Shown here piece after piece: positions 23,871-54,379 of a DNA stretch of 64,000 bases. How positions within the stretch are numbered: position 1 is the stretch's first letter; each line of letters starts with the position of its first letter. The notes under the pieces were generated by a model. It ran no database searches. It was not told where the DNA came from and worked only from the letters and a program-made list of their open reading frames with translations. The stretch lies in contig CAKUFD010000003.1 of assembly GCA_934647195.1 (NCBI GenBank), positions 124,001 to 188,000 of the forward strand, given 5' to 3'. This stretch comes from an uncultured Collinsella sp. GTDB lineage: Bacteria > Actinomycetota > Coriobacteriia > Coriobacteriales > Coriobacteriaceae. Made by a program: the position numbers and the translations under genes.

Positions 23871-24011
23871 AAAACAATTCGAAGTGCGTACCCTAATTTG
23901 AATTTGCAAAGTAGACCGTGGTTTTTGATGACAAAACCCCAGGAAATGAGGGGGTTTAATAATTGGTCTACTTTGACTTTTTAATTCAGGGTACGCACTT
24001 CGAAGAGTTTT
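23871..24011. repeat. Large imperfect inverted repeat, MITE-like
   Basis: Two 40-nt arms, 23878-23917 and 23965-24004, pair almost end to end: TTCGAAGTGCGTACCCT at the outside and CAAAGTAGACC at the inside are identical in both arms, with about six mismatches between. A 47-nt centre contains ACAAAACCCC and GGGGGTTT. The flanks AAAAC/GTTTT extend the pairing. It lies between the nuclease-like gene and the rubrerythrin terminator. It could be a non-autonomous mobile element or a strong bidirectional hairpin. Confidence 0.75.
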
Positions 24012-26287: not shown

Positions 26288-27651
26288 CCGCAATCGTCGA
26301 AGAACAGCGACGTTACTTCAACACGCATGTCACCTTTGACGTCACTGCACGAAAGGCTGCCTTGCGCGCGTTGCTGGCAAGCGTGCAGGCCCATGAAGGC
26401 GATATCGCTGCAGCTCTGCATGCCGATTTGGGCAAGAGCCACAGCGAGGCGTATATGTGCGAGATTGGTACCTCGCTTGCGGAGATTCGCCATCAGATTG
26501 CCCACGTTGCGTCGTGGAGCCGCGCGCGTCTGCGTCCGTGCGATCTGGCGAACGCCATCAGCGTGTGCAGGGTTCAGCCCGTACCCTATGGTGTGACCCT
26601 CGTTATGGCACCGTGGAACTACCCGTTCTTGCTTACGCTTGAGCCCCTGGCGGGTGCCCTTGCCGCGGGCAACACTGTGGTCCTCAAGCCGAGCGCCTAC
26701 GCGCCCGCCTCAAGTGCCGTGCTGCGTCGGATTTGCGAGGAAGCGTTCGATCCGCGCCTGGTGCGTGTGGTCGAGGGAGGTCGTGCCGAGAATACGGCTT
26801 TGCTACAGCAGCGCTGGGACAAGATTTTCTTCACCGGCAGCGTGAACGTGGGCAAACTCGTGATGGAGCAGGCGAGCCGCAATCTTACGCCGGTGACGCT
26901 GGAGTTGGGCGGCAAGAGCCCCTGCATTGTGGATGCCTCGGCAAATATCAAGGTGGCGGCACGCCGCATCGCCTTTGGCAAGTGGCTCAACGTGGGCCAG
27001 ACCTGCGTGGCGCCCGATTATCTGATGGTGGACGAGCGTGTGCACGACGAGCTGCTCGAGGCCCTCAAGGGTTGCGTTCGCTCCATGTATGGCGAGGATG
27101 CGCCGAGCAACCCCGCGTACGGCAAGATGGTGAATGCTAAGCACTTCGACCGCGTGCGCGGGCTTATCGACCCCGCCAAGGTCGTGCTGGGCGGCCGTGC
27201 GGACGAAGCATCGCTCAAGATCGAGCCCACGATCCTCGACGGCGTTGATCCGAGCACAGACGCCGTGATGCAAGAGGAGATCTTTGGTCCCGTGTTGCCG
27301 GTCATCACCTATAAGAGTCTGGACGAGGTGGAGCGTTTTATTGTGGACCGCCCCACGCCGCTTGCGCTCTACATCTTTAGCGAGGATCGCGCGGTGCAGC
27401 AGCGCTTCACGCGCTACGTGCCCTTTGGCGGAGGCTGCGTGAACGACTGCATTATGCACCTGGCCACGAGCCACATGGGCTTTGGCGGCATGGGGGAGAG
27501 CGGCATGGGCCAGTACCATGGCCGCGAGAGCTTTGACACCTTTAGCCACAAGAAGAGCATCGTGTCCAAAGCGACATTTTTTGATGCCCCCTTCCGCTAT
27601 GCGCCCTATGCGGGATGGAAGGACAAGTTCGTCCGTTTCTTCGTGCATTAG
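26269..27651 (+). CDS. NAD(P)+-dependent aldehyde dehydrogenase
   Basis: A 460-residue ALDH of the class 3/YwdH type: APWNYPFLLTLEPLAGALAAGN, FTGSVNVGK, the general base Glu in LELGGKSPCIVD and nucleophile Cys in VGQTCVAPDY. The hydrophobic C-terminus (WKDKFVRFFVH) suggests membrane association as in class 3 fatty-aldehyde dehydrogenases. Oxidises an aldehyde to the free acid. Its start lies inside the alcohol dehydrogenase gene, and a terminator follows. Confidence 0.88.
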   Translation: MVEQEIAAIVEEQRRYFNTHVTFDVTARKAALRALLASVQAHEGDIAAALHADLGKSHSEAYMCEIGTSLAEIRHQIAHVASWSRARLRPCDLANAISVCRVQPVPYGVTLVMAPWNYPFLLTLEPLAGALAAGNTVVLKPSAYAPASSAVLRRICEEAFDPRLVRVVEGGRAENTALLQQRWDKIFFTGSVNVGKLVMEQASRNLTPVTLELGGKSPCIVDASANIKVAARRIAFGKWLNVGQTCVAPDYLMVDERVHDELLEALKGCVRSMYGEDAPSNPAYGKMVNAKHFDRVRGLIDPAKVVLGGRADEASLKIEPTILDGVDPSTDAVMQEEIFGPVLPVITYKSLDEVERFIVDRPTPLALYIFSEDRAVQQRFTRYVPFGGGCVNDCIMHLATSHMGFGGMGESGMGQYHGRESFDTFSHKKSIVSKATFFDAPFRYAPYAGWKDKFVRFFVH

Positions 27652-27671
27652 ATCAAACACTGTAAAACACA

Positions 27672-27715
27672 TAAGCCGATGTGCCGCGTTAAGCAGCGGC
27701 GCATCGGCTTTTTTA
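27672..27715 (+). terminator. Rho-independent terminator after the ADH/ALDH pair
   Basis: Long stem AGCCGATGTGCCGC / GCGGCGCATCGGCT with loop GTTAAGCA, followed by TTTTTT. Confidence 0.9.
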
Positions 27716-27753
27716 ATGGCGGGTTGCCTGACGATTGAGCAACTGCGGCAGGC

Positions 27754-28164
27754 CTAGATGACAATTCCTGCGCAGTGGTCGCACTCGTGCTGGATGATCT
27801 GCGCCACAAATCCAGAGAAGCTGCGGGTATGCTCGTGCCAGGAATCGTCCAGGTAGGTCACGCGGATGCTGCGGTAGCGCGTGCACGGGCGCGTGCCCTC
27901 GAGCGAGAGGCAAGCCTCCTCGGTTTGATACTCGTCGTGGCGCTCGATAATGCGGGGGTTGAACATTACGAGCGTGCGCGAGCCCTCGGCTACGGCGATG
28001 ACGCATTTGCGCTTACCGATCATGTTCGCGGCGAGCCCCACGCACTCATGGGAATGGGCTGCGAGCGTGTCGGCAAGGTCGCGCCCGATGCCGATGTCTT
28101 CCGGCGTGGCCGGCGCGCTGGGCATGCGCAGCATGATGGGCGAGTGGACGATATTGCAAACCAT
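27754..28164 (-). CDS. def: Peptide deformylase-like metalloenzyme
   Basis: A 136-residue protein with the three deformylase motifs: GLAANMIG (motif 1), EEACLSLEG (motif 2, with the metal-binding Cys) and QHECDH (motif 3, HExxDH). In motif 1 the usual Gln that stabilises the oxyanion is Met, a variant seen in short anaerobe deformylases, so activity may be changed. It would remove formyl groups from new proteins. Shorter than typical Def (~165). ATG 28164 follows AAGGGG; a 17-residue upstream extension is rejected. Divergent from the restriction-modification gene. Confidence 0.78.
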   Translation of the reverse strand: MVCNIVHSPIMLRMPSAPATPEDIGIGRDLADTLAAHSHECVGLAANMIGKRKCVIAVAEGSRTLVMFNPRIIERHDEYQTEEACLSLEGTRPCTRYRSIRVTYLDDSWHEHTRSFSGFVAQIIQHECDHCAGIVI

Positions 28165-28284
28165 GGTTTCCCCTTGTGGATCGATCGAGAGCCGCTGCGT
28201 GTGAGTGTAGCCCATTGCATCGCCGCGCGGGAGGCTGGCGTATGGACGGGTGGATGCGGCGATACCGAAAGAGCTCAGATTATG

Positions 28285-28345
28285 CCCTATTAGAACATCC
28301 GTTCGATCGGTACAATGATGCGATCGAACGGATGTTCTAATAGGG
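28285..28345. promoter_or_regulatory. Perfect 25-bp inverted repeat with LexA-type boxes and GATC sites
   Basis: Arms 28285-28309 and 28321-28345 are perfect complements around an 11-nt spacer. Each arm contains GAACATCCGTTC (or its complement), which fits the Gram-positive LexA/DinR pattern GAAC-N4-GTTC, and an overlapping CGATCG. The right arm runs into the SD (AGGGG) 6 bp before ATG 28352, so in mRNA it would be hidden in a hairpin. It is read here as an operator or translational control site for the restriction-modification gene. Confidence 0.8.
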
Positions 28346-28351
28346 GCTGAG

Positions 28352-31030
28352 ATGCACGAAGAGAACGGTGTCGGATACGATAGCTCATCGCTTGACTCGA
28401 TTTGTAGATACGCTAAGCGTCTTGAAGGCCATACCTTGCGTGAAGAATGCCCTGAGCTTACTACGCTAGAGGATTCTCATCGCCGCAAGGGTTCTTTTGG
28501 TAACGCTGTCGAGCAGTACTATTTTCACTATGCGATTAATAGCGATCCGAATCCTGATTTTGAAGAGGTGGGCACGGAGCTCAAAACAACACCTCTCAAA
28601 CTAAAGCGTGACGGTAGCTTCTCTGCAAAAGAACGTCTCGTTATAAGCATGATTAACTATATGAGCGTAGTTGATGAGACATGGGAAACGAGCAGCCTGC
28701 AAAAGAAACTGCAAAAGATATTGTTGGTCGCCTATCAGTACGAGAAGGATATCAACCCCGTAGATTTTCTAGTCAAGGTTGTTGAACTTTGGGGCGTTCC
28801 TCAAGAAGACATTCCGACGTTTAAGAGCGATTGGGATACGGTTGTCGCAAAGATACGTGCGGGTAAGGCGCACGAGCTTTCTGGATCAGATACGCTTTAT
28901 CTTGAAGCCGCGACAAAGGCTTCAAGCAGCAAAGATCGGCGCCAGCAGCCCTTTTCTGATATCCCTGCCAAGCCCAGGGCATGGGCTATTAAAAACTCCT
29001 ATATGACCGTAGCCCTTAATGGGCTACTTGAAGTACAGAAAATAAAACGAGAAAGGGATGAGGAGCGGCTCGATTTATACGAACTCATCCATAGAAGATT
29101 TGAGTCTTATTTCGGTTTGACAGAGGTGGAACTTGCCGAAGTCTGTGGCTATGTTGGAAAGGGGCCTGGTAAACCAAAGAATCTATGTGCTCTCATCACG
29201 CGCCATATTCTTGGTGTCGAGGAAGACGCCAGAATTGCGGAATTCGAGAAGGCCGGAATCAAGCCAAAGACGATGCGTGTCAAGGCAAACGGAGTGCCGA
29301 AGGAGTCAATATCCTTTCCCGTTTTTGACTATCTCGACCTCGTTCAACAATCCTTTGAGGAAAGCGAGTTTTGGGACTATCTGCATCAGAAATACCTGTT
29401 TGTTATCTATCGGGAAGATGCGGATGAAAAGGGTGTCTACCGTTTGTCCGAGGTTCTGTTCTGGCAGATGCCTGATGCCGATTTGATTGAAGCCCGGCGC
29501 TGCTATGACGAGATGCGGCGACGTGTGAAGAATGGCCATGCTGAGCAATCGGTTCGCTCGACAGAAAACCGTTGTTGCCACGTTAGGCCTCACGGACGCA
29601 ATAAATTGGATACGCTGCCGACACCGTATGGAACGCAGGAAACAAAAAAGTGTTTTTGGATCAATGCTCGCTATATTGGCGAAGAGATCGATAGAGTAGA
29701 GCGAGAAAACAGTCGATGGCGTCGCGACGCCGATGTGCAGAATAACGGAGACGGTGTGTCTGATCAGGTAATTCGAGTTGCAGAACTTTTTGCTGGCGTT
29801 GGTGGTTTCCGTTTAGGTCTTGAAGGCTATGTGGATAAAACAGAGGCAGAATTGAATATGCCGGCTGCAGGCCCCTTCCAAACGGTTTGGGCGAATCAGT
29901 GGGAGCCGCCAGGAACTCCGGTGAGGCAATTTGCAGCCGATTGTTATCGTAAGCGATTTGATGACGGGACTTTGCTCAACGAAGACATCCATGCTGCCCT
30001 GGATGAATATGAACGCGGAACGATTGATATCCCCGATGTCGATATGGTGGTCGGCGGTTTCCCGTGTCAGGATTATTCGGTTGCAAAGCCGCTTTCAAAG
30101 GCAAGCGGAATCGAGGGCAAAAAAGGTGTTCTTTGGTGGGACATCTACCGTTTCTTAAAGTTGAAGAATTGTCCGCGCTACGTGCTGTTGGAGAATGTCG
30201 ATCGCTTGCTTAAGAGCCCGGCGTCTCAACGAGGGCGCGACTTCGCCATCATTTTGTCATGCCTTGCTTCGCTTGGCTATGCGGCGGAATGGCGAGTGAT
30301 TAACGGAGCCGATTACGGCTTTCCTCAGAAGCGTCGTCGTACGTACATTTATGCAGAGAAGACGGACGTGGCTTGGGATTTGAAGAAGCGTCTTGAAGAC
30401 GGTGTGATGGCTGAGGCCTTCCCTGCTGAGGCGCTCAGAGACATAACAGAATCAGCTGTTTTTAATGACCCCTATGACAATACTCAGAAATTCGGTATTG
30501 GGCTCAAGGCTTCACCCTTCCAAAACTCAGGTGTGATGCAAGGTTGCACTTTTGTGACCGCCAAAGTCCAGGCAAAATATGCAGGTGCTTGCAAGACCCT
30601 TGGTGACGTCCTCGTCAACGATGAGGACGTGCCGGAGGAGTTTTTTGTCGAGAATGAAAAGCTTGATAAATGGCGTTATCTCAAGGGCGGTAAAAGTGAG
30701 CCTCGTGTGGATAAACGCACGGGATTTACCTATAACTACTCCGAGGGCTCGATGGCATTTCCGGATTCGGCGGCATCTCCTGCACGAACCATCCTGACAA
30801 GTGAGGGGGGGGGTGGCGCCTCCCGGACAAAGCATATCGTTCAGGCTGCAGACGGGCGTTTTCGACGCCTGCTGCCCGACGAGCTCGATCAGTTGCAGGG
30901 CTTTCCGAAGGGTTGGACGGATACTGGCATGACGGACATCCAGCGCGCATTTTGCGCCGGAAATGCGTTGATTGTCGGCATCCCACATCGAATCGGCCAG
31001 GTTATTGCGGGTAGGTCGTTCAAGGTTTAG
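28352..31030 (+). CDS. Fused Sau3AI-like restriction endonuclease and DNA (cytosine-5) methyltransferase
   Basis: An 892-residue single-chain type II restriction-modification enzyme. Residues ~40-110 hold the MutH/Sau3AI catalytic set: Asp69, Glu76 and Lys78 (DFEEVGTELKTTP), with the same D-x6-E-x-K spacing as E. coli MutH. Residues ~230-400 match the second, regulatory Sau3AI domain (MRVKANGVPKESISFP; YLFVIYRED). From ~470 a C5 methyltransferase follows: AELFAGVGGFRLGLEG (SAM site), GGFPCQDYSVAK with catalytic Cys572, LLENVDRLLKS, and a C-terminal FPDSAASPARTILTS/ELDQLQGFP. Sau3AI recognises GATC, so that is the predicted site. Lower GC than neighbours suggests acquisition. Its stop overlaps the convergent DUF262 gene by 4 bp. 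Confidence 0.88.
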   Translation: MHEENGVGYDSSSLDSICRYAKRLEGHTLREECPELTTLEDSHRRKGSFGNAVEQYYFHYAINSDPNPDFEEVGTELKTTPLKLKRDGSFSAKERLVISMINYMSVVDETWETSSLQKKLQKILLVAYQYEKDINPVDFLVKVVELWGVPQEDIPTFKSDWDTVVAKIRAGKAHELSGSDTLYLEAATKASSSKDRRQQPFSDIPAKPRAWAIKNSYMTVALNGLLEVQKIKRERDEERLDLYELIHRRFESYFGLTEVELAEVCGYVGKGPGKPKNLCALITRHILGVEEDARIAEFEKAGIKPKTMRVKANGVPKESISFPVFDYLDLVQQSFEESEFWDYLHQKYLFVIYREDADEKGVYRLSEVLFWQMPDADLIEARRCYDEMRRRVKNGHAEQSVRSTENRCCHVRPHGRNKLDTLPTPYGTQETKKCFWINARYIGEEIDRVERENSRWRRDADVQNNGDGVSDQVIRVAELFAGVGGFRLGLEGYVDKTEAELNMPAAGPFQTVWANQWEPPGTPVRQFAADCYRKRFDDGTLLNEDIHAALDEYERGTIDIPDVDMVVGGFPCQDYSVAKPLSKASGIEGKKGVLWWDIYRFLKLKNCPRYVLLENVDRLLKSPASQRGRDFAIILSCLASLGYAAEWRVINGADYGFPQKRRRTYIYAEKTDVAWDLKKRLEDGVMAEAFPAEALRDITESAVFNDPYDNTQKFGIGLKASPFQNSGVMQGCTFVTAKVQAKYAGACKTLGDVLVNDEDVPEEFFVENEKLDKWRYLKGGKSEPRVDKRTGFTYNYSEGSMAFPDSAASPARTILTSEGGGGASRTKHIVQAADGRFRRLLPDELDQLQGFPKGWTDTGMTDIQRAFCAGNALIVGIPHRIGQVIAGRSFKV

Positions 31031-32751
31031 CTGAGAATGCCGTCTGCTATTGCTATGGCGATTTGGCATGAGCGAGTTTTAACTACCCGGTTTGCCGTTT
31101 CGAAGTCCTTGTGGCTGAGGGCATCGACTGCTTCTTGCAAATCGCTTTCCGAGGGATAGAGGGAATCTTTAATCAATTGCTCGTAATTCGATGCGCCCGC
31201 ATCGTAAAGCGTCTTCTCTTTCTTTTTATTGTTGTCAAGACGGGGAAGATACATGCAGTTGCCAATTACGCCGCCAAAAAAGGACCGGCTGGCAGGATTG
31301 TCATATTTATTGATAATCTTTTTAGGAATAATATGCTCAAGCTCATATCCGTCTCCATAGGGAACGCTTGTCGAAAGATAAGTTAAGTTCGCATGGATGG
31401 TAGTGATTGCTTTAGTTTCCTTGTTGAACTGGATGCCAGGGGTTGCGTCTGCCAGCCAGTGATCGAATGCCTCTATGAGCCTGTTTCGATCCACGGGATC
31501 AAGGTAGCTCCTCTTTTTGTATTCGGGGTAATAGTCCAACAATCGCTGGTCACCATGGGAGGACCAAGATTTATTTAATGCATCGAGGAGATAATAGGCT
31601 TTGATGTTTTTAAGGGAGTTGCAGTAGTCTTCTGACCCGGGAGCAAGTTCCCAAAGAGCGGCGAAATACGAAAGAGTTTTGAATGTAGTGGAAAGCCCCA
31701 ACATGTACTCATCGTTTTTATTGCCCTTGATGCGTTTGAGTAATTTGCCAAATATGTCTTGCAGATTGACGCAGATGCGTTCCACTTTTTCAAGAATAAT
31801 CTGAAGCTTGTTATCAATAGCCTCGGTATGCCTGTTTAATTTCGAAAGGGATCTGTTATCGACGTTCATTGCGATTCCGAGCAGGCCAAAGCCGATTTCA
31901 GCGACTGCGTTCTCTCCTTGGGGGATAAGCGCTTTCAAGCTGTTCTGAACAAACATACCAAGGGCAATCCCGAGTTCAGAGAGCGTGATGATGCGATTTT
32001 GCGTCAGCTCGTCTTCGGAAAATCCCTCCAACTCAAATTCGGCGTTTTTAATCATGTCGTTGTAATGGCGTTTGACATTATCAAGAATCTTGTCTTGGAG
32101 GGGTGATTCTCCCGCTGGGAGTAGATTAATTGTCGTATTTACCCACGCTGCATTGAAGATTTCGTACTTTGAAAGCGGCGTTCCGCCTTGATTGAGATTC
32201 GAGAAGACGGTGGCGATGAGTTCCCTGTTGCCAGTGAATTTAATTGCCGGTATTTTGAGGTTTTCAAGATCAACGAAATTGTCGATAGCGTTCCTTAAGG
32301 TCTTGACTTCTTGCCTTACTTCTTTTCGCGTTTGTTTTTGATCGATGTCGTCAACCCAATCGTCGTAGTCATCTGAATCGACCCAGGGATACAGCTCATC
32401 AAATTTTTTCTCGCTTAATTTCAAGTCATCGGGGAGCATATCGTTGATTCGGTCGAGAGAGCTTTGATACTCCTCTCGATTTAGCGGTTTCCAGAAACGG
32501 AGCGGGCATTTTTTGTATTCAAGGATGGTAGATAAACGCTGTTGACCATCGAGAATTTGAAGCATCGATTCGTTCGTTTGGTCTTCGGGATATATGAGCA
32601 CTGCACCGAAGGGAAGGCCTTGGCGCAGTGTGTCAATAAAGTCCTCTTTCTTCTTTTGAGTCCAGACGAGCTTTCTCTGGAAAAGCGGAAGCTTAATGCG
32701 TTCGAGGTCGCCGATTGTCAGGTCGAGAGAAGAATAAAGGGCTGCGCTCAT
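31027..32751 (-). CDS. DUF262/DUF1524 (GmrSD-like) defence nuclease
   Basis: A 574-residue protein of the GmrSD/DUF262 class. The N-terminal DUF262 (ParB/Srx-like) domain has LPLFQRKLVW and the nucleotide-site motif DGQQR (68-72). The C-terminal DUF1524 HNH-type nuclease shows ELEHIIPKKI followed by FGGVIGNCMYLPRLDNNKKKEK. Relatives restrict modified phage DNA (GmrSD, glucosylated hmC) or act with phosphorothioation (SspE). It faces the restriction-modification gene, so the pair forms a defence island. GGAGG precedes the ATG, and a GATC-containing palindrome lies upstream. Low GC. Target modification unknown. Confidence 0.83.
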   Translation of the reverse strand: MSAALYSSLDLTIGDLERIKLPLFQRKLVWTQKKKEDFIDTLRQGLPFGAVLIYPEDQTNESMLQILDGQQRLSTILEYKKCPLRFWKPLNREEYQSSLDRINDMLPDDLKLSEKKFDELYPWVDSDDYDDWVDDIDQKQTRKEVRQEVKTLRNAIDNFVDLENLKIPAIKFTGNRELIATVFSNLNQGGTPLSKYEIFNAAWVNTTINLLPAGESPLQDKILDNVKRHYNDMIKNAEFELEGFSEDELTQNRIITLSELGIALGMFVQNSLKALIPQGENAVAEIGFGLLGIAMNVDNRSLSKLNRHTEAIDNKLQIILEKVERICVNLQDIFGKLLKRIKGNKNDEYMLGLSTTFKTLSYFAALWELAPGSEDYCNSLKNIKAYYLLDALNKSWSSHGDQRLLDYYPEYKKRSYLDPVDRNRLIEAFDHWLADATPGIQFNKETKAITTIHANLTYLSTSVPYGDGYELEHIIPKKIINKYDNPASRSFFGGVIGNCMYLPRLDNNKKKEKTLYDAGASNYEQLIKDSLYPSESDLQEAVDALSHKDFETANRVVKTRSCQIAIAIADGILS

Positions 32752-32765
32752 GTTACCTCCAAAGA

Positions 32766-32787
32766 TAGTGAGATCATGATCTCACTA
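32766..32787. promoter_or_regulatory. Perfect 22-bp palindrome with two GATC sites
   Basis: Centred on GAGATCATGATCTC, fully self-complementary without spacer, 15 bp upstream of the DUF262 start codon. It contains two GATC sequences 2 bp apart. Likely operator for the DUF262 gene. Confidence 0.75.
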
Positions 32788-32909
32788 CGCCGAGGCATGT
32801 CAATCCATGTCCGCACGGGGAGGTACCTTCTAATCAACAAAAAGCCCGGGGACGCGCGGGCGGGCGAGAGGCCCGCATGTGGCGCCGCGGGAGGTTGGAA
32901 GGGGTAACC

Positions 32910-33236
32910 ATGTACGAGCCGTCACGTCAAATTTCTTCGTTCTACATCGCCGGATTCCAGTACTGGGACGGAGCTTTGGTGCTCTCCGAGCTCAAGGTGG
33001 GCGAGCGCCTGCGCCTAGTGCCGGAGTTCGACAATCCGCACGATCCGTCCGCCATGGCCATCTATCGCGGCGAGACCAAGATGGGCTTTGTGCCTGGATC
33101 GGAAAACGAGCTGCTGGCCCTCATGTTCTTCTATGGTCACTCCGACGGCTTTGAACTGCGCGTCTTGCAGGTCTCTCCCGATAAAAATCCGTGGGAACAG
33201 GTGCGCGTTGGCCTGTATGTAACCGATGCTCGCTAG
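32910..33236 (+). CDS. HIRAN-domain protein
   Basis: A 108-residue protein consisting essentially of one HIRAN domain: SFYIAGFQYWDG, LRLVPEFDNPHDPSAMAIYRGETKMGFVP and LRVLQVSPDKNPWEQVRVGLYV. HIRAN domains bind 3' ends of single-stranded DNA in repair helicases such as HLTF; stand-alone bacterial versions have no settled role. ATG 32910 follows GGAAGGGG. It lies just outside the defence island and has the GC content of the core genome, so may be unrelated to it. Confidence 0.8.
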   Translation: MYEPSRQISSFYIAGFQYWDGALVLSELKVGERLRLVPEFDNPHDPSAMAIYRGETKMGFVPGSENELLALMFFYGHSDGFELRVLQVSPDKNPWEQVRVGLYVTDAR

Positions 33237-33369
33237 GTAAACGCTGCGGACAAGCCTTCGTTTGCCGTATCATGCATAGATAAGGGATTCGCCGGGTCCC
33301 GATTCTGCCCATGGGGCGGGGTCGGGACTGCGGCTTTTGTTCGCGACGGCGGAGCGGGGGAGACACGTC

Positions 33370-33936
33370 ATGATGTGGTTCACGGCAGATACGCATTTTG
33401 GACACTCGAATATTATCGAGCTCACGCATCGTCCGTTCGCATCGGTCCAAGAGATGGATCGGCGCCTTATTGCGAATATCAACGACCGCGTGAGTGCGCG
33501 CGATTCCCTCTACATCCTGGGGGACTTTTCGTTTCGCACGACGGTTGAAGAGGCATATGCCATTCGCAAAAAGATCGTTTGCCAGCACGTGCACCTCATC
33601 CGTGGAAACCACGACAAGCATTGGATTGATAGCCCCTTCCCAGATGCATTCGAATCCGAGCAGGACTATCTGGAAATCAAGCCGGGGTTTGCCAAGGGCG
33701 TCCGTCTGGACCTGTTCCATTACCCCATGCTGAGCTGGAACGGCAAGTGGCGCGGGGCCATTCATCTTCATGGGCACATCCATACCGAAGGGCCCGACTA
33801 CAACGAGCGCAATCGCGAGCGCGGCATTTTGCGTTACGACGTTGGCGTCGATGCCAATGGCTATTGTCCCGTGAGTCGCGATGCCATTCTGGCCTTCTTT
33901 GATGGCGTGGAGCCACAGCCCGCGCAGCTGGCGTGA
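33370..33936 (+). CDS. Calcineurin-like metallophosphoesterase
   Basis: A 188-residue phosphoesterase with the family motifs in order: FTADTHFGHSNII (D-x-H), LYILGDFSF (GDxx), LIRGNHDKHW (GNHD) and HLHGHIHTEG (GHxH). The metal ligands are all present. Similar short proteins act as phosphodiesterases or nucleotidases; the substrate cannot be told. ATG 33370 (or 33373) is preferred, after GGGGGAG. Solitary gene. A 440-bp gap without ORF but with a long inverted repeat follows. Confidence 0.82.
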   Translation: MMWFTADTHFGHSNIIELTHRPFASVQEMDRRLIANINDRVSARDSLYILGDFSFRTTVEEAYAIRKKIVCQHVHLIRGNHDKHWIDSPFPDAFESEQDYLEIKPGFAKGVRLDLFHYPMLSWNGKWRGAIHLHGHIHTEGPDYNERNRERGILRYDVGVDANGYCPVSRDAILAFFDGVEPQPAQLA

Positions 33937-34122: not shown

Positions 34123-34257
34123 CTGTGGCGGTAAATCGAACATTTTGAAATGAGTGGCGGTTGTTGAAACGTTTTTGAGGGCGTTTCCGGTTGGAAACGT
34201 GCGATTATCCGCCACTCGTTGAATTAGGCGTCGCAGATGTACGATTTACCGCCACAG
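34123..34257. repeat. 135-bp structured inverted-repeat element
   Basis: Outer arms CTGTGGCGGTAAATCG (34123-34138) and CGATTTACCGCCACAG (34242-34257) are perfect complements. Inside lie a second pair, AGTGGCGG/CCGCCACT, and a central hairpin CGTTTCC-GGTT-GGAAACG. The nested symmetry suggests a MITE or a structured RNA. Remaining parts of the 33937-34380 gap are G+C-rich without recognisable features. Confidence 0.7.
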
Positions 34258-34380
34258 ATCGCGGCAGATCGCAGTGGTGGGCCGCAGCAACGTCACTGCT
34301 TTCTTTCGCGTCATCACGCACGGCTGTGTCCGTCCGGGGCGGTATGCTGTCTTTCAAAGCAAACCAGCGAGGGGAGCCCC

Positions 34381-35997
34381 ATGAACGAGATCAAGTGCCC
34401 GCATTGCGGTCAGATGTTTAAGATCGACGAGTCGAGCTACGCCGATATCGTCAGCCAGGTGCGTACGGCGGAGTTCGCACGCGATGTTGCCGAGCGCGAG
34501 GCTGCAGCTAAGCGCGAGGGCGAAAGCGCCGTGGCGCTCGCGCGCGTCGAGGCGGATAAACGGCTGCAGGAAGCCCTGGCCTCTCACAATACCGAGATGG
34601 CCGACCTGCGCGTTAAAGCAAACACCCTCGTACAAAAAGCTCAAAGCGAGTCCGAGGCGCGCATTGCCGAGCTTGAGGCCAAGCTTGCCGCTGCGGCAGA
34701 ATCGCAGAAAGCTGCTCGCAACGAAGCTGCCGCCGAGGCTCGCGCGGATGCGCAGAAGACGGCCTCCGAGCTGCAGCGTGAGGTAGATCGTTTGCGCGCC
34801 GAGGCCGCGCGCCAGGCGGACGCGGTCAAGCTGGCGCAGGCCAGCGCTACTGCTGCTGCCAAAGACGAGCTCGCCGCGCGCGACGCTCAAATCGCTCAGC
34901 TCCAGGCTCGTCTCGATGCGGCTGATTCTACGCGCGAGATGGCCGTTCAAAAGGCTCAATCCGATGCCCAGCGCGAGGCCGATGCGCTGCGTTCGCAGAT
35001 TCGCGAGCAGAAGAGCGAGGCTGCCGCCGAGCTTACGCGGGCCGTTTCCCAGGCGGAGCGCGAGCGCGATGAGGCGCGTGCCAAGCTCGCAAGCGAGCTT
35101 GCGTTGCGCGATTCACGTGAGCAGCAGGCCGCCGCGGCGCATAAGCTTGAGCTTGCTCAGGCCAAGAAAACGACTGAGGAGCTCATTCGTTACAAGGATG
35201 AAGAGATCGAGCGCCTGCGCGACATGAAGGCGCGTCTTTCCACCAAGATGGTGGGCGAGAGCCTGGAGCAGCATTGTGAGACTGAGTTCAACCGCCTGCG
35301 CATGACGGCGTTTCCCAATGCATACTTTGAGAAGGACAACGACGCCTCTGAGGGCACCAAGGGCGACTTCATCTTCCGCGAGTGCGATGAGATGGGCAAC
35401 GAAATCATCTCCATCATGTTTGAGATGAAAAACGAGAACGACACTACGGCGACCAAACATAAGAACGAGGACTTCTTTAAGAAGCTTGATCATGATCGCA
35501 GGCAGAAAAACTGCGAGTATGCCGTGCTCTGCACGTTGCTCGAGCCGGATAGCGATCTGTACAACACAGGCATCGTGGACGTGAGCTATCGCTACGAGAA
35601 GATGTACGTTATTCGTCCGCAGTTCTTCATCCCGCTCATCACACTGCTGCGCAATGCGGCTATGAACTCGCTTTCCTATAAGCAGGAACTCGCCGTGGTG
35701 CGCCAGCAGAATATCGACGTCACCAACTTCGAGGCCAAGATGGAGGAGTTCAAGACTGGTTTTGCGCGCAACTATGACTTGGCGAGCCGCAAGTTCCAGA
35801 CGGCGATCGAAGAGATCGACAAGACCATCACGCATCTGCAAAAGACCAAGGATGCGCTGCTTTCGTCCGAGAATAACCTGCGCCTGGCGAACAACAAGGC
35901 AGAGGGCCTGACCATCAAGCGTCTGACGCGCGGTAACCCCACGATGAAGGCTGCCTTTGAGGAAGCCGCTGCTAAGCGCGAAGCCGCCGAGGGGTAG
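34381..35997 (+). CDS. DUF2130 coiled-coil protein
   Basis: A 538-residue DUF2130 protein. An N-terminal zinc-finger-like CPHCG (residues 5-9), a long Ala/Glu/Arg-rich coiled coil (~25-290), then the conserved DUF2130 domain with [33 protein letters not shown] and [15 protein letters not shown]. That domain carries nuclease-like E...D...E-x-K residues (PD-(D/E)XK type is possible). Function is unknown in the family. ATG 34381 follows GAGGGGAG. A terminator and repeat copy C come after it. Confidence 0.85.
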
Positions 35998-54230: not shown

Positions 54231-54254
54231 ACAAGAGGGGTGCCATCCAGTCCT

Positions 54255-54286
54255 GTGACAAAGTGTCGACAGGTTTATTCTGTCAC
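54255..54286 (+). repeat. 32-bp dispersed palindromic repeat, copy D
   Basis: GTGACAAAGTGTCGACAGGTT...TGTCAC, 24 bp after the alcohol dehydrogenase stop and co-oriented with it; followed by ATATTCAC. Confidence 0.85.
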
Positions 54287-54328
54287 ATATTCACCCTTCC
54301 TACACATGTATGGATGCCATGTGAAAAT

Positions 54329-54360
54329 GTGACAGAATAAACCTGTCGTTTTGCTGTCAC
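54329..54360 (-). repeat. 32-bp dispersed palindromic repeat, copy E
   Basis: On the minus strand GTGACAGCAAAACGACAGG...TGTCAC followed by ATTTTCAC, 19 bp after the helicase stop and co-oriented with it. Copies D and E face each other in this convergent gap. Confidence 0.85.
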
Positions 54361-54379
54361 ATCGGGGAGGGTGAAGGGG

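What the first reader, a model, noticed from the sequence alone, without database searches (positions are those of the whole stretch)
28352..31030. Single-chain Sau3AI-like endonuclease and C5-methyltransferase
The gene joins a complete two-domain Sau3AI-type endonuclease (Asp69/Glu76/Lys78) to an M.Sau3AI-like C5-methyltransferase (Cys572) in one 892-residue chain. In Staphylococcus these activities are separate genes. A fused enzyme must cut and protect the same site from one polypeptide, which raises questions of how self-cutting is avoided.
Basis: partly seen in the sequence, partly recalled or inferred. Interest (0 to 1): 0.75.

Follow-up and report, generated by a model that had tools for sequence, protein, structure and literature searches.

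The report
Switchable one-piece DNA cutter and protector
A gut bacterium related to Collinsella carries one protein that looks able both to cut and to chemically protect the DNA sequence GATC; a slippery run of G's in its gene appears to switch the protecting half on and off, which makes it testable how cells in the off state avoid cutting their own DNA.

Summary
Window 28352-31030 is one uninterrupted 892-codon gene joining a Sau3AI-family endonuclease (NF040973, 400.3 bits, cut-off 300) to a complete C5-cytosine methyltransferase. It is no assembly error: 14 of 65 genomes of the relatives' family carry the fusion. (1) The methyltransferase half holds a poly-G tract (G9, 30805-30813), the only G/C run of 7 or more in the window. 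All 15 fused genes read as DNA have it (G7-G13); none of 32 unfused relatives does. In 10 of 15 it puts methyltransferase motifs IX-X out of frame, yet that frame stays open and conserved, and near-identical alleles occur in both states: the signature of phase variation. (2) A perfect 25-bp inverted repeat just upstream (28285-28345) brackets TACAAT with GATC sites; its core occurs once in each of 14 fused genomes and in 2 of 51 others, at another spacing. Best reading: a natural, phase-variable Type IIC enzyme with a self-regulated promoter, whose cutting half must be silent when the protecting half is off. Activity, specificity, silencing and regulation are inferred.

The parts
28285..28345 (.). 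Perfect 25-bp inverted repeat (28285-28309 / 28321-28345), 11-nt loop, ending 6 nt before the start codon; GATC at 28305-28308 and 28322-28325
   Evidence: the repeat finder I3, 100% complementary; fold z -9.5; core conserved in 15 of 15 fused loci; arms perfect over 19-25 bp in 9 of the 14 loci, 11 bp in L012, no perfect arm of 9 or more in L002, L008, L010, L011
28311..28316 (+). TACAAT, -10-like hexamer in the loop of the repeat (inferred promoter element)
   Evidence: TAYRAT in 15 of 15 fused loci; against: the consensus scan called no promoter in 28000-31300
28352..31030 (+). Fused restriction-modification gene, 892 aa
28352..29719 (+). Sau3AI-type endonuclease half, residues 1-456; D69, E76, K78
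   Evidence: NF040973 15-446, 4pxg 35-454, residues
29720..29770 (+). Linker, residues 457-473; 458-470 has pLDDT below 50
29771..31027 (+). C5-methyltransferase half, residues 474-892; Cys572 in PCQ
   Evidence: TIGR00675 476-883, PF00145 474-885
30805..30813 (+). Poly-G tract G9 (last base of codon 818 to second base of codon 821); in frame in the window
30814..31027 (+). Methyltransferase segment after the tract, holding motifs IX and X (motif names recalled), lost in OFF alleles
   Evidence: (M.HhaI second piece 815-882)

Best explanation
A natural single-chain (Type IIC) restriction-modification enzyme for GATC that arose by fusion of a tandem Sau3AI-type R-M gene pair in the Collinsella/Enorma lineage and is switched on and off by slipped-strand mispairing at a poly-G tract in its methyltransferase half. 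ON (the window): one protein methylates GATC at C5 and cuts unmethylated GATC. OFF: the frame is lost just before methyltransferase motifs IX and X, while the endonuclease half is still encoded. Because OFF alleles come from viable organisms, four of ten without any other C5-methyltransferase gene found, the endonuclease must be silent in the OFF protein, most simply because it needs the intact methyltransferase half for stability, assembly or target binding. The GATC-bearing palindrome over the presumed promoter probably lets the enzyme, or methylation by it, set its own expression. SHOWN: fusion, tract, frame states, conserved hidden frame, palindrome. INFERRED: both activities, GATC specificity, reversibility in a culture, dependence of cutting on the methyltransferase half, autoregulation.
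For: Fusion. Tract in 15 of 15 fused genes read as DNA, 0 of 32 unfused loci L014-L045. Lengths G7, G8, G9, G10, G13; 5 ON and 10 OFF, both wrong frames. Hidden frame open to its stop and 77-87% identical to the window in 9 of 9 OFF alleles examined; dN/dS about 0.08 for OFF-OFF pairs (30 of 36 usable). Near-identical ON/OFF pairs at 97.8-99.1%; L002 and L008 genes differ by 109 substitutions and one gap, the tract; one ~99% gene in three frames (P0013, P0037, L009). At least 17 ON/OFF changes on a tree of 57, no fewer than label shuffles (18.3, sd 1.7). Endonuclease D-E-K present in 14 of 14, 9 of them OFF. Four of 10 OFF genomes have no PF00145 gene but the broken one. Palindrome core once in each of 14 fused genomes, 2 of 51 others, none at unfused loci L014-L059; arms covary. 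A linked Sau3AI homologue plus C5-methyltransferase gives GATm5C in Metamycoplasma hominis (PMC10305163, passages).
Against: No activity, methylation or expression data. The model shows no confident contact between the halves (pTM 0.57, linker disordered), so dependence of cutting on the methyltransferase half has no structural support. Reads were not seen: some OFF calls could be homopolymer errors. Fusion and tract share one lineage, so their co-occurrence may be one event; in three ON database rows (P0003, P0023, P0046) the residues at the site need not imply a tract. GATC is not rarer near fused than near unfused loci. No consensus promoter was called, and two of five covariation measures did not exceed shuffles.
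Confidence: 0.68

Rival explanations
1. Ribosomal or transcriptional slippage at the tract makes a mixture of full-length and truncated protein from every allele; the tract sets the ratio of methyltransferase to endonuclease, and OFF alleles still make enough methyltransferase to protect the cell.
For: The hidden frame stays conserved in OFF alleles, and survival of OFF cells would need no silencing of the endonuclease.
Against: A programmed shift would keep one fixed relation of tract to frame; here in-frame, +1 and -1 alleles all occur, also among near-identical genes.
Confidence: 0.14
2. The OFF endonuclease is active (or simply not expressed), and OFF cells survive because GATC is protected by another enzyme or the gene is repressed through the palindrome.
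For: Catalytic residues intact in OFF alleles; 6 of 10 OFF genomes carry another C5-methyltransferase of unknown specificity; a palindrome over the presumed promoter could repress.
Against: 4 of 10 OFF genomes show no other PF00145 gene (drafts may be incomplete and other methyltransferase classes were not searched). Sau3AI is described as cutting GATC irrespective of 6mA (PMC10305163, passages), so a Dam-type enzyme would not be expected to protect.
Confidence: 0.1
3. OFF alleles are sequencing or assembly errors in a homopolymer, or decaying pseudogenes; the enzyme is constitutive.
For: Homopolymers are error-prone and no reads were seen. P0045 and P0047 are broken elsewhere.
Against: 10 of 15 genes read as DNA and 14 of 47 database rows are OFF, from many assemblies, with lengths G7-G13 and both wrong frames. 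Decay is contradicted by the conserved hidden frame.
Confidence: 0.06
4. An ordinary single-chain R-M enzyme; the G run is codon bias kept by descent and has no role.
For: All tract-bearing genes share one lineage; the tract encodes glycines that unfused enzymes partly share.
Against: GGG is 16% of glycine codons in these genes outside the tract; synonymous sites next to it are near saturation (mean dS 1.5-2.0) while the run is kept in 15 of 15 and varies in length.
Confidence: 0.02

Closest known systems
Sau3AI restriction-modification system (Staphylococcus aureus; separate R and M genes)
   Same: Both endonuclease domains (4pxg over 35-454; NF040973 above cut-off) and a C5-methyltransferase half.
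   Different: One chain instead of two, poly-G tract in the methyltransferase half, GATC palindrome upstream.
RM.Eco29kI, an engineered Type IIC fusion (PMC3039593; abstract and passages)
   Same: REase before an m5C methyltransferase, palindromic target, made from a head-to-tail pair; the paper names Sau3A among pairs that could give natural Type IIC enzymes.
   Different: Laboratory-made, GIY-YIG nuclease; here natural, MutH/Sau3AI-type nuclease, with a slippage tract.
Cj0031, phase-variable Type IIG enzyme of Campylobacter jejuni (PMC4889913; passages)
   Same: One gene for both activities, poly-G tract inside the gene that splits it in two when out of frame.
   Different: Cj0031 is Type IIG with an M.TaqI-like methyltransferase part; here a Sau3AI-type nuclease and a C5-methyltransferase, with the tract near the end of the gene, after the whole nuclease.
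CfrBI-type regulation by promoter methylation (PMC12707154, section 10)
   Same: The system's own target site within inverted repeats at the promoter.
   Different: CfrBI has divergent R and M genes; here one gene. No regulation has been shown.
Methyltransferase-first Sau3AI fusions (P0048, P0054, P0056 and others)
   Same: The same two kinds of domain in one chain.
   Different: Opposite order, so an independent fusion; 43-48% identity to the window protein over about half its length.

Membership tests
Sau3AI-family Type II endonuclease (NF040973) | Profile score above the curated cut-off over nearly the full model | tested here: met
   400.3 bits, cut-off 300, model 4-474 of 475
Sau3AI-family Type II endonuclease (NF040973) | MutH-type catalytic D, E, K and a C-terminal effector domain | tested here: met
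   D69/E76/K78; C domain by 2reu and 7xm0
Sau3AI-family Type II endonuclease (NF040973) | Cuts before GATC | not testable with these tools
   Needs an assay; family match and GATC in the upstream palindrome are hints only
C5-cytosine methyltransferase | Catalytic PCQ, ENV and Q(K/R)RR motifs and motifs IX and X (motif names recalled) | tested here: met
   PCQ, ENV and Q(K/R)RR in 14 of 14 loci; the segment with IX and X in frame in the window
M.Sau3AI-like specificity | Methylates C of GATC | not testable with these tools
   A linked Sau3AI-homologue/C5-methyltransferase pair does so in M. hominis (PMC10305163, passages)
Type IIC restriction-modification enzyme | Both activities in one polypeptide | tested here: inconclusive
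   Both domains are in one ORF with catalytic residues; activities not tested. Definition from PMC12707154 section 14
Phase-variable gene by simple sequence repeat | In-frame homopolymer whose length differs among close relatives, giving ON and OFF frames | tested here: met
Phase-variable gene by simple sequence repeat | Reversible switching in one population | not testable with these tools
   No reads; conserved hidden frame and lack of phylogenetic signal are indirect
R-M gene regulated by methylation of its promoter (CfrBI-like) | Own target sites inside the promoter | tested here: inconclusive
   GATC on both sides of TAYRAT in 15 of 15 fused loci; no consensus promoter called
R-M gene regulated by methylation of its promoter (CfrBI-like) | Transcription changes with methylation | not testable with these tools
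   No expression data

The most novel reading that the evidence does not exclude
Fusion is what made phase variation of a Type II R-M system survivable: in this family cutting is licensed by the intact methyltransferase half, so one slippage event in the methyltransferase disarms both activities, and the GATC-loaded palindrome at the promoter lets the enzyme read its own methylation to re-arm safely. Protection would then be a built-in precondition for cutting, in a switchable GATC immunity enzyme of common gut bacteria.
Probability: 0.35. Interest if true: 0.78.

Novelty: new variant of a known kind. Interest (0 to 1): 0.64.

Why it matters
Most Type II endonucleases act independently of their methyltransferase (PMC12707154 section 14), so losing only the methyltransferase should be lethal. 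Here nature seems to toggle just that half in viable organisms whose nuclease residues are intact. That makes the old question of how a one-chain cutter and protector avoids suicide testable with natural ON and OFF alleles. It also meets a 2011 prediction that head-to-tail pairs such as Sau3A could give natural Type IIC enzymes (PMC3039593) and points to switchable GATC methylation in gut Coriobacteriia.

Tried and rejected
GATC avoidance as a sign of activity in vivo: O/E 0.79 near fused, 0.74 near tandem and 0.73 near other unfused loci, uninformative. Rescue by a separately made downstream fragment (split methyltransferases such as AquI, recalled) was only considered by eye, not tested. RNA hairpin as the role of the palindrome: if TACAAT is a -10 box the transcript would hold only the right arm, and double changes are mostly Watson-Crick; a DNA operator or cruciform is preferred, not proven. 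Rfam: one sub-threshold hit (mir-5592, 23.6 bits, gathering 82, E 0.66), taken as chance on a hairpin. Mobile-element origin: no DNA match of 27000-33500 in phages; protein matches covering 80% or more were 2 of 4313 matching plasmid records and 2 of 1088 matching phage records, all below 60% identity; two viral contigs gave methyltransferase matches only. The H1 and H2 records hold separate genes; in H41 and H42 the methyltransferase ORFs are 586 and 412 aa, not one 890-aa chain. Papers: the ten searches listed no title or abstract start on a natural Sau3AI-type fusion or its phase variation; they cover open-licence PMC papers only, and REBASE could not be searched. PMC6789123 was seen in passages and not used.

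Full report
1. The observation. Window 28352-31030 (+) is a single 892-codon ORF. The endonuclease half scores 400.3 bits to NF040973 (Sau3AI family, cut-off 300), the methyltransferase half 191.8 bits to TIGR00675; Pfam gives MutH and DNA_methylase. By sequence, Sau3AI 4pxg aligns over 35-454, the Sau3AI C-domain entries 2reu and 7xm0 over 293-456, and M.HhaI over about 474-673 with a weak second piece over 815-882. The AlphaFold2 model, from 55 aligned proteins that I chose, has mean pLDDT 85.8 and pTM 0.57: two confident halves and a stretch 458-470 below 50. Foldseek returns Sau3AI, M.HhaI and MutH.

2. A real gene family. The protein search listed its best 120 of 4578 hits; the top 46 (P0002-P0047) are relatives with both domain families, 44 of them over 70% or more of the query. 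In genome contigs 57 loci came back. In 13 (L001-L013: titles Collinsella, Enorma or Coriobacteriaceae) R and M are one ORF; in 15 others (L014-L016, L019, L022, L024, L026, L032, L034-L038, L044, L045) an R gene precedes an M gene on the same strand, overlapping or usually close. Of 65 genomes of the relatives' family, 26 match at E <= 1e-100 and 14 of these are fused: by position and identity the 13 above plus one new, G059 = L094. No genome is held for the window; it is collinear with L001 (Collinsella bouchesdurhonensis) at about 85-89% DNA identity. Fusions with the methyltransferase first (P0048, P0054, P0056 read; more by coverage) show that such genes have fused more than once. P0049 and P0055 have the window's order at 39% identity; their DNA was not seen.

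3. A poly-G tract in the methyltransferase half. The 15 fused genes read as DNA (window, L001-L013, L094) all carry an uninterrupted G run at the same codons, before motif IX: G7 (L006), G8 (L012), G9 (window, L001, L003-L005, L008, L010, L011, L013, L094), G10 (L002, L007), G13 (L009, with neighbouring substitutions). The 32 unfused loci L014-L045 (Coriobacteriia by title except L031, Alloscardovia, as far as titles tell) have no G run of 7 or more there; L042 has G6. It is the only G/C run of 7 or more in the window. GGG is 16% of glycine codons in these genes outside the tract.

4. Frame states. In 5 of 15 (window, L001-L004) the tract keeps the frame; in 10 of 15 (L005-L013, L094) it does not, and both wrong frames occur. 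Lost are the last 70-odd residues, with motifs IX and X (names recalled). In 9 of 9 OFF alleles examined (L094 not included) the lost frame is open to its own stop and 77-87% identical to the window. Over 62 codons dN/dS is 0.08 for OFF-OFF (30 of 36 pairs usable), 0.05 for ON-ON (9 of 10), 0.08 for ON-OFF (32 of 45); dS is near saturation and unusable pairs were dropped. Of 47 database rows (46 clusters and the query) 31 are ON, 14 OFF and 2 broken earlier; three ON rows (P0003, P0023, P0046) need not have a tract. Eight ON/OFF pairs are 97.8-99.1% identical upstream of the tract; P0013, P0037 and L009, 2 to 7 differences in 810, are in three frames; the L002 and L008 genes differ by 109 substitutions and one gap, the tract. 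On a quick tree of 57 fused proteins (23 OFF) the state changes at least 17 times, no fewer than with shuffled labels (mean 18.3, sd 1.7; 102 of 300 shuffles as low), and still 17 without three likely duplicates.

5. The paradox. The endonuclease half lies before the tract, and D-E-K is present in 14 of 14 loci checked, 9 of them OFF (L094 not checked). In 4 of 10 OFF genomes (G003 = L005, G004 = L011, G033 = L009, G059 = L094) the only PF00145 gene at E <= 1e-5 is the broken one; the other 6 have further C5-methyltransferases of unknown specificity. Assemblies may be incomplete, and other methyltransferase classes were not searched. So viable organisms seem to encode an intact GATC endonuclease with no C5-methyltransferase to protect GATC. 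The simplest way out is that cutting needs the intact methyltransferase half; the alternatives are slippage rescue or other protection. The model gives no confident contact between the halves: this step is inference.

6. The upstream element. A perfect 25-bp inverted repeat with an 11-nt loop (28285-28345) ends 6 nt before the start codon and folds with z -9.5. All 15 fused loci share the core CGATCG-RTAYRAT-N5-6-GATCG. The arms are perfect over 19-25 bp in 9 of 14 loci, 11 bp in L012, and imperfect in L002, L008, L010 and L011. Arms covary: 36 cells changed on both sides against 17.5 in shuffles (0 of 500), covariation score 0.252 against 0.138 (0 of 500), all slid registers lower; but the number of pairs with double changes (11 against 9.2, 63 of 500) and of pair types (21 against 21.8) does not stand out (13 distinct rows). 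The pattern occurs once in each of 14 fused genomes and in 2 of 51 other family genomes (G039, G043, other spacing), and once in the window (0 in 100 shuffles). It is absent from L014-L059; near 15 tandem R genes one unrelated perfect repeat (L034) was found. TAYRAT looks like a -10 box, but the scanner called no promoter. A target site inside inverted repeats at the promoter is how CfrBI is regulated (PMC12707154 section 10), so methylation-sensing self-regulation is the natural hypothesis, and GATC here hints that GATC is the target.

7. What is known. Single-chain enzymes are Type IIC; the review suggests they may be safe at low concentration because methyltransferases act as monomers and endonucleases as dimers (PMC12707154 section 14). 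PMC3039593 (abstract and passages) made RM.Eco29kI by fusing an R and an m5C M gene, says the other proven Type IIC enzymes have m6A methyltransferases, and lists Sau3A among pairs that could give natural ones. Cj0031 is a poly-G phase-variable single-chain Type IIG enzyme (PMC4889913, passages). A 2026 review speaks of limited representation of ON/OFF phase variation in Type II systems (PMC13076061, passages). Each ingredient is known; I found the combination in none of the ten paper searches, which cover open-licence PMC papers only.

8. Other poly-G runs. The L001 genome has 4 distinct G runs of 9 or more: this gene, one at the signal-peptide-like start of an ORF that reads like a surface protein, and two that look intergenic (by eye, no family search).

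9. Verdict. Observation confirmed; interpretation partly supported and extended. Shown: fusion, tract, frame states, conserved hidden frame, palindrome. Inferred: GATC specificity, both activities, reversible switching, silence of the nuclease in OFF cells, self-regulation. New variant of a known kind.

Noticed in passing
window 31027-32751 (-): A GmrSD_N (DUF262) gene, a possible Type IV-like defence gene, converges on the fused gene with a 4-base overlap of their ends; the same neighbour is in L001 (94%) and L005 (55%).
   Followed up: partly
window 34237-35997 (+): A DUF2130 gene lies downstream of the fused gene here and in L001, L002, L003, L006, L008, L009 and L010, suggesting a conserved chromosomal place.
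   Followed up: partly
P0048, P0054, P0056, P0058, P0071, P0122-P0126, P0130, P0133, P0138, P0139: Single-chain proteins with methyltransferase and Sau3AI/MutH domains in the opposite order by reading (P0048, P0054, P0056) or by coverage of P0056.
   Followed up: partly
P0092, P0095, P0098, P0108, P0113, P0114, P0116: Relatives of the methyltransferase half carrying PF00730 (HhH-GPD DNA glycosylase, name recalled), perhaps for repair of deaminated 5mC.
   Followed up: no
P0059, P0061, P0062, P0065, P0066, P0067: Methyltransferases matching the window over about 36% of its length carry intein-type domains PF13403 and/or PF14890 (names recalled).
   Followed up: no
P0107: A 679-aa Chloroflexota protein with PF00145, PF02976 and PF15515, named MvaI/BcnI family endonuclease: another possible endonuclease/C5-methyltransferase fusion.
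   Followed up: no
L103, 1216-1225: G10 run at the signal-peptide-like start of an ORF that reads like a surface protein in the L001 genome, possibly another phase-variable gene.
   Followed up: partly
L046 7932-10526: Two adjacent Sau3AI-type methyltransferase genes (44% and 43% to the window) divergent from one endonuclease gene in Bittarella.
   Followed up: no
window 23871-24011 and 54254-54361: Two long imperfect inverted repeats (47-nt arms 81%, 41-nt arms 83% complementary), unrelated to the fused gene.
   Followed up: no
L009 10449-10461: The longest tract, G13, comes with substitutions in the codons just before it, unlike the near-identical P0037.
   Followed up: partly
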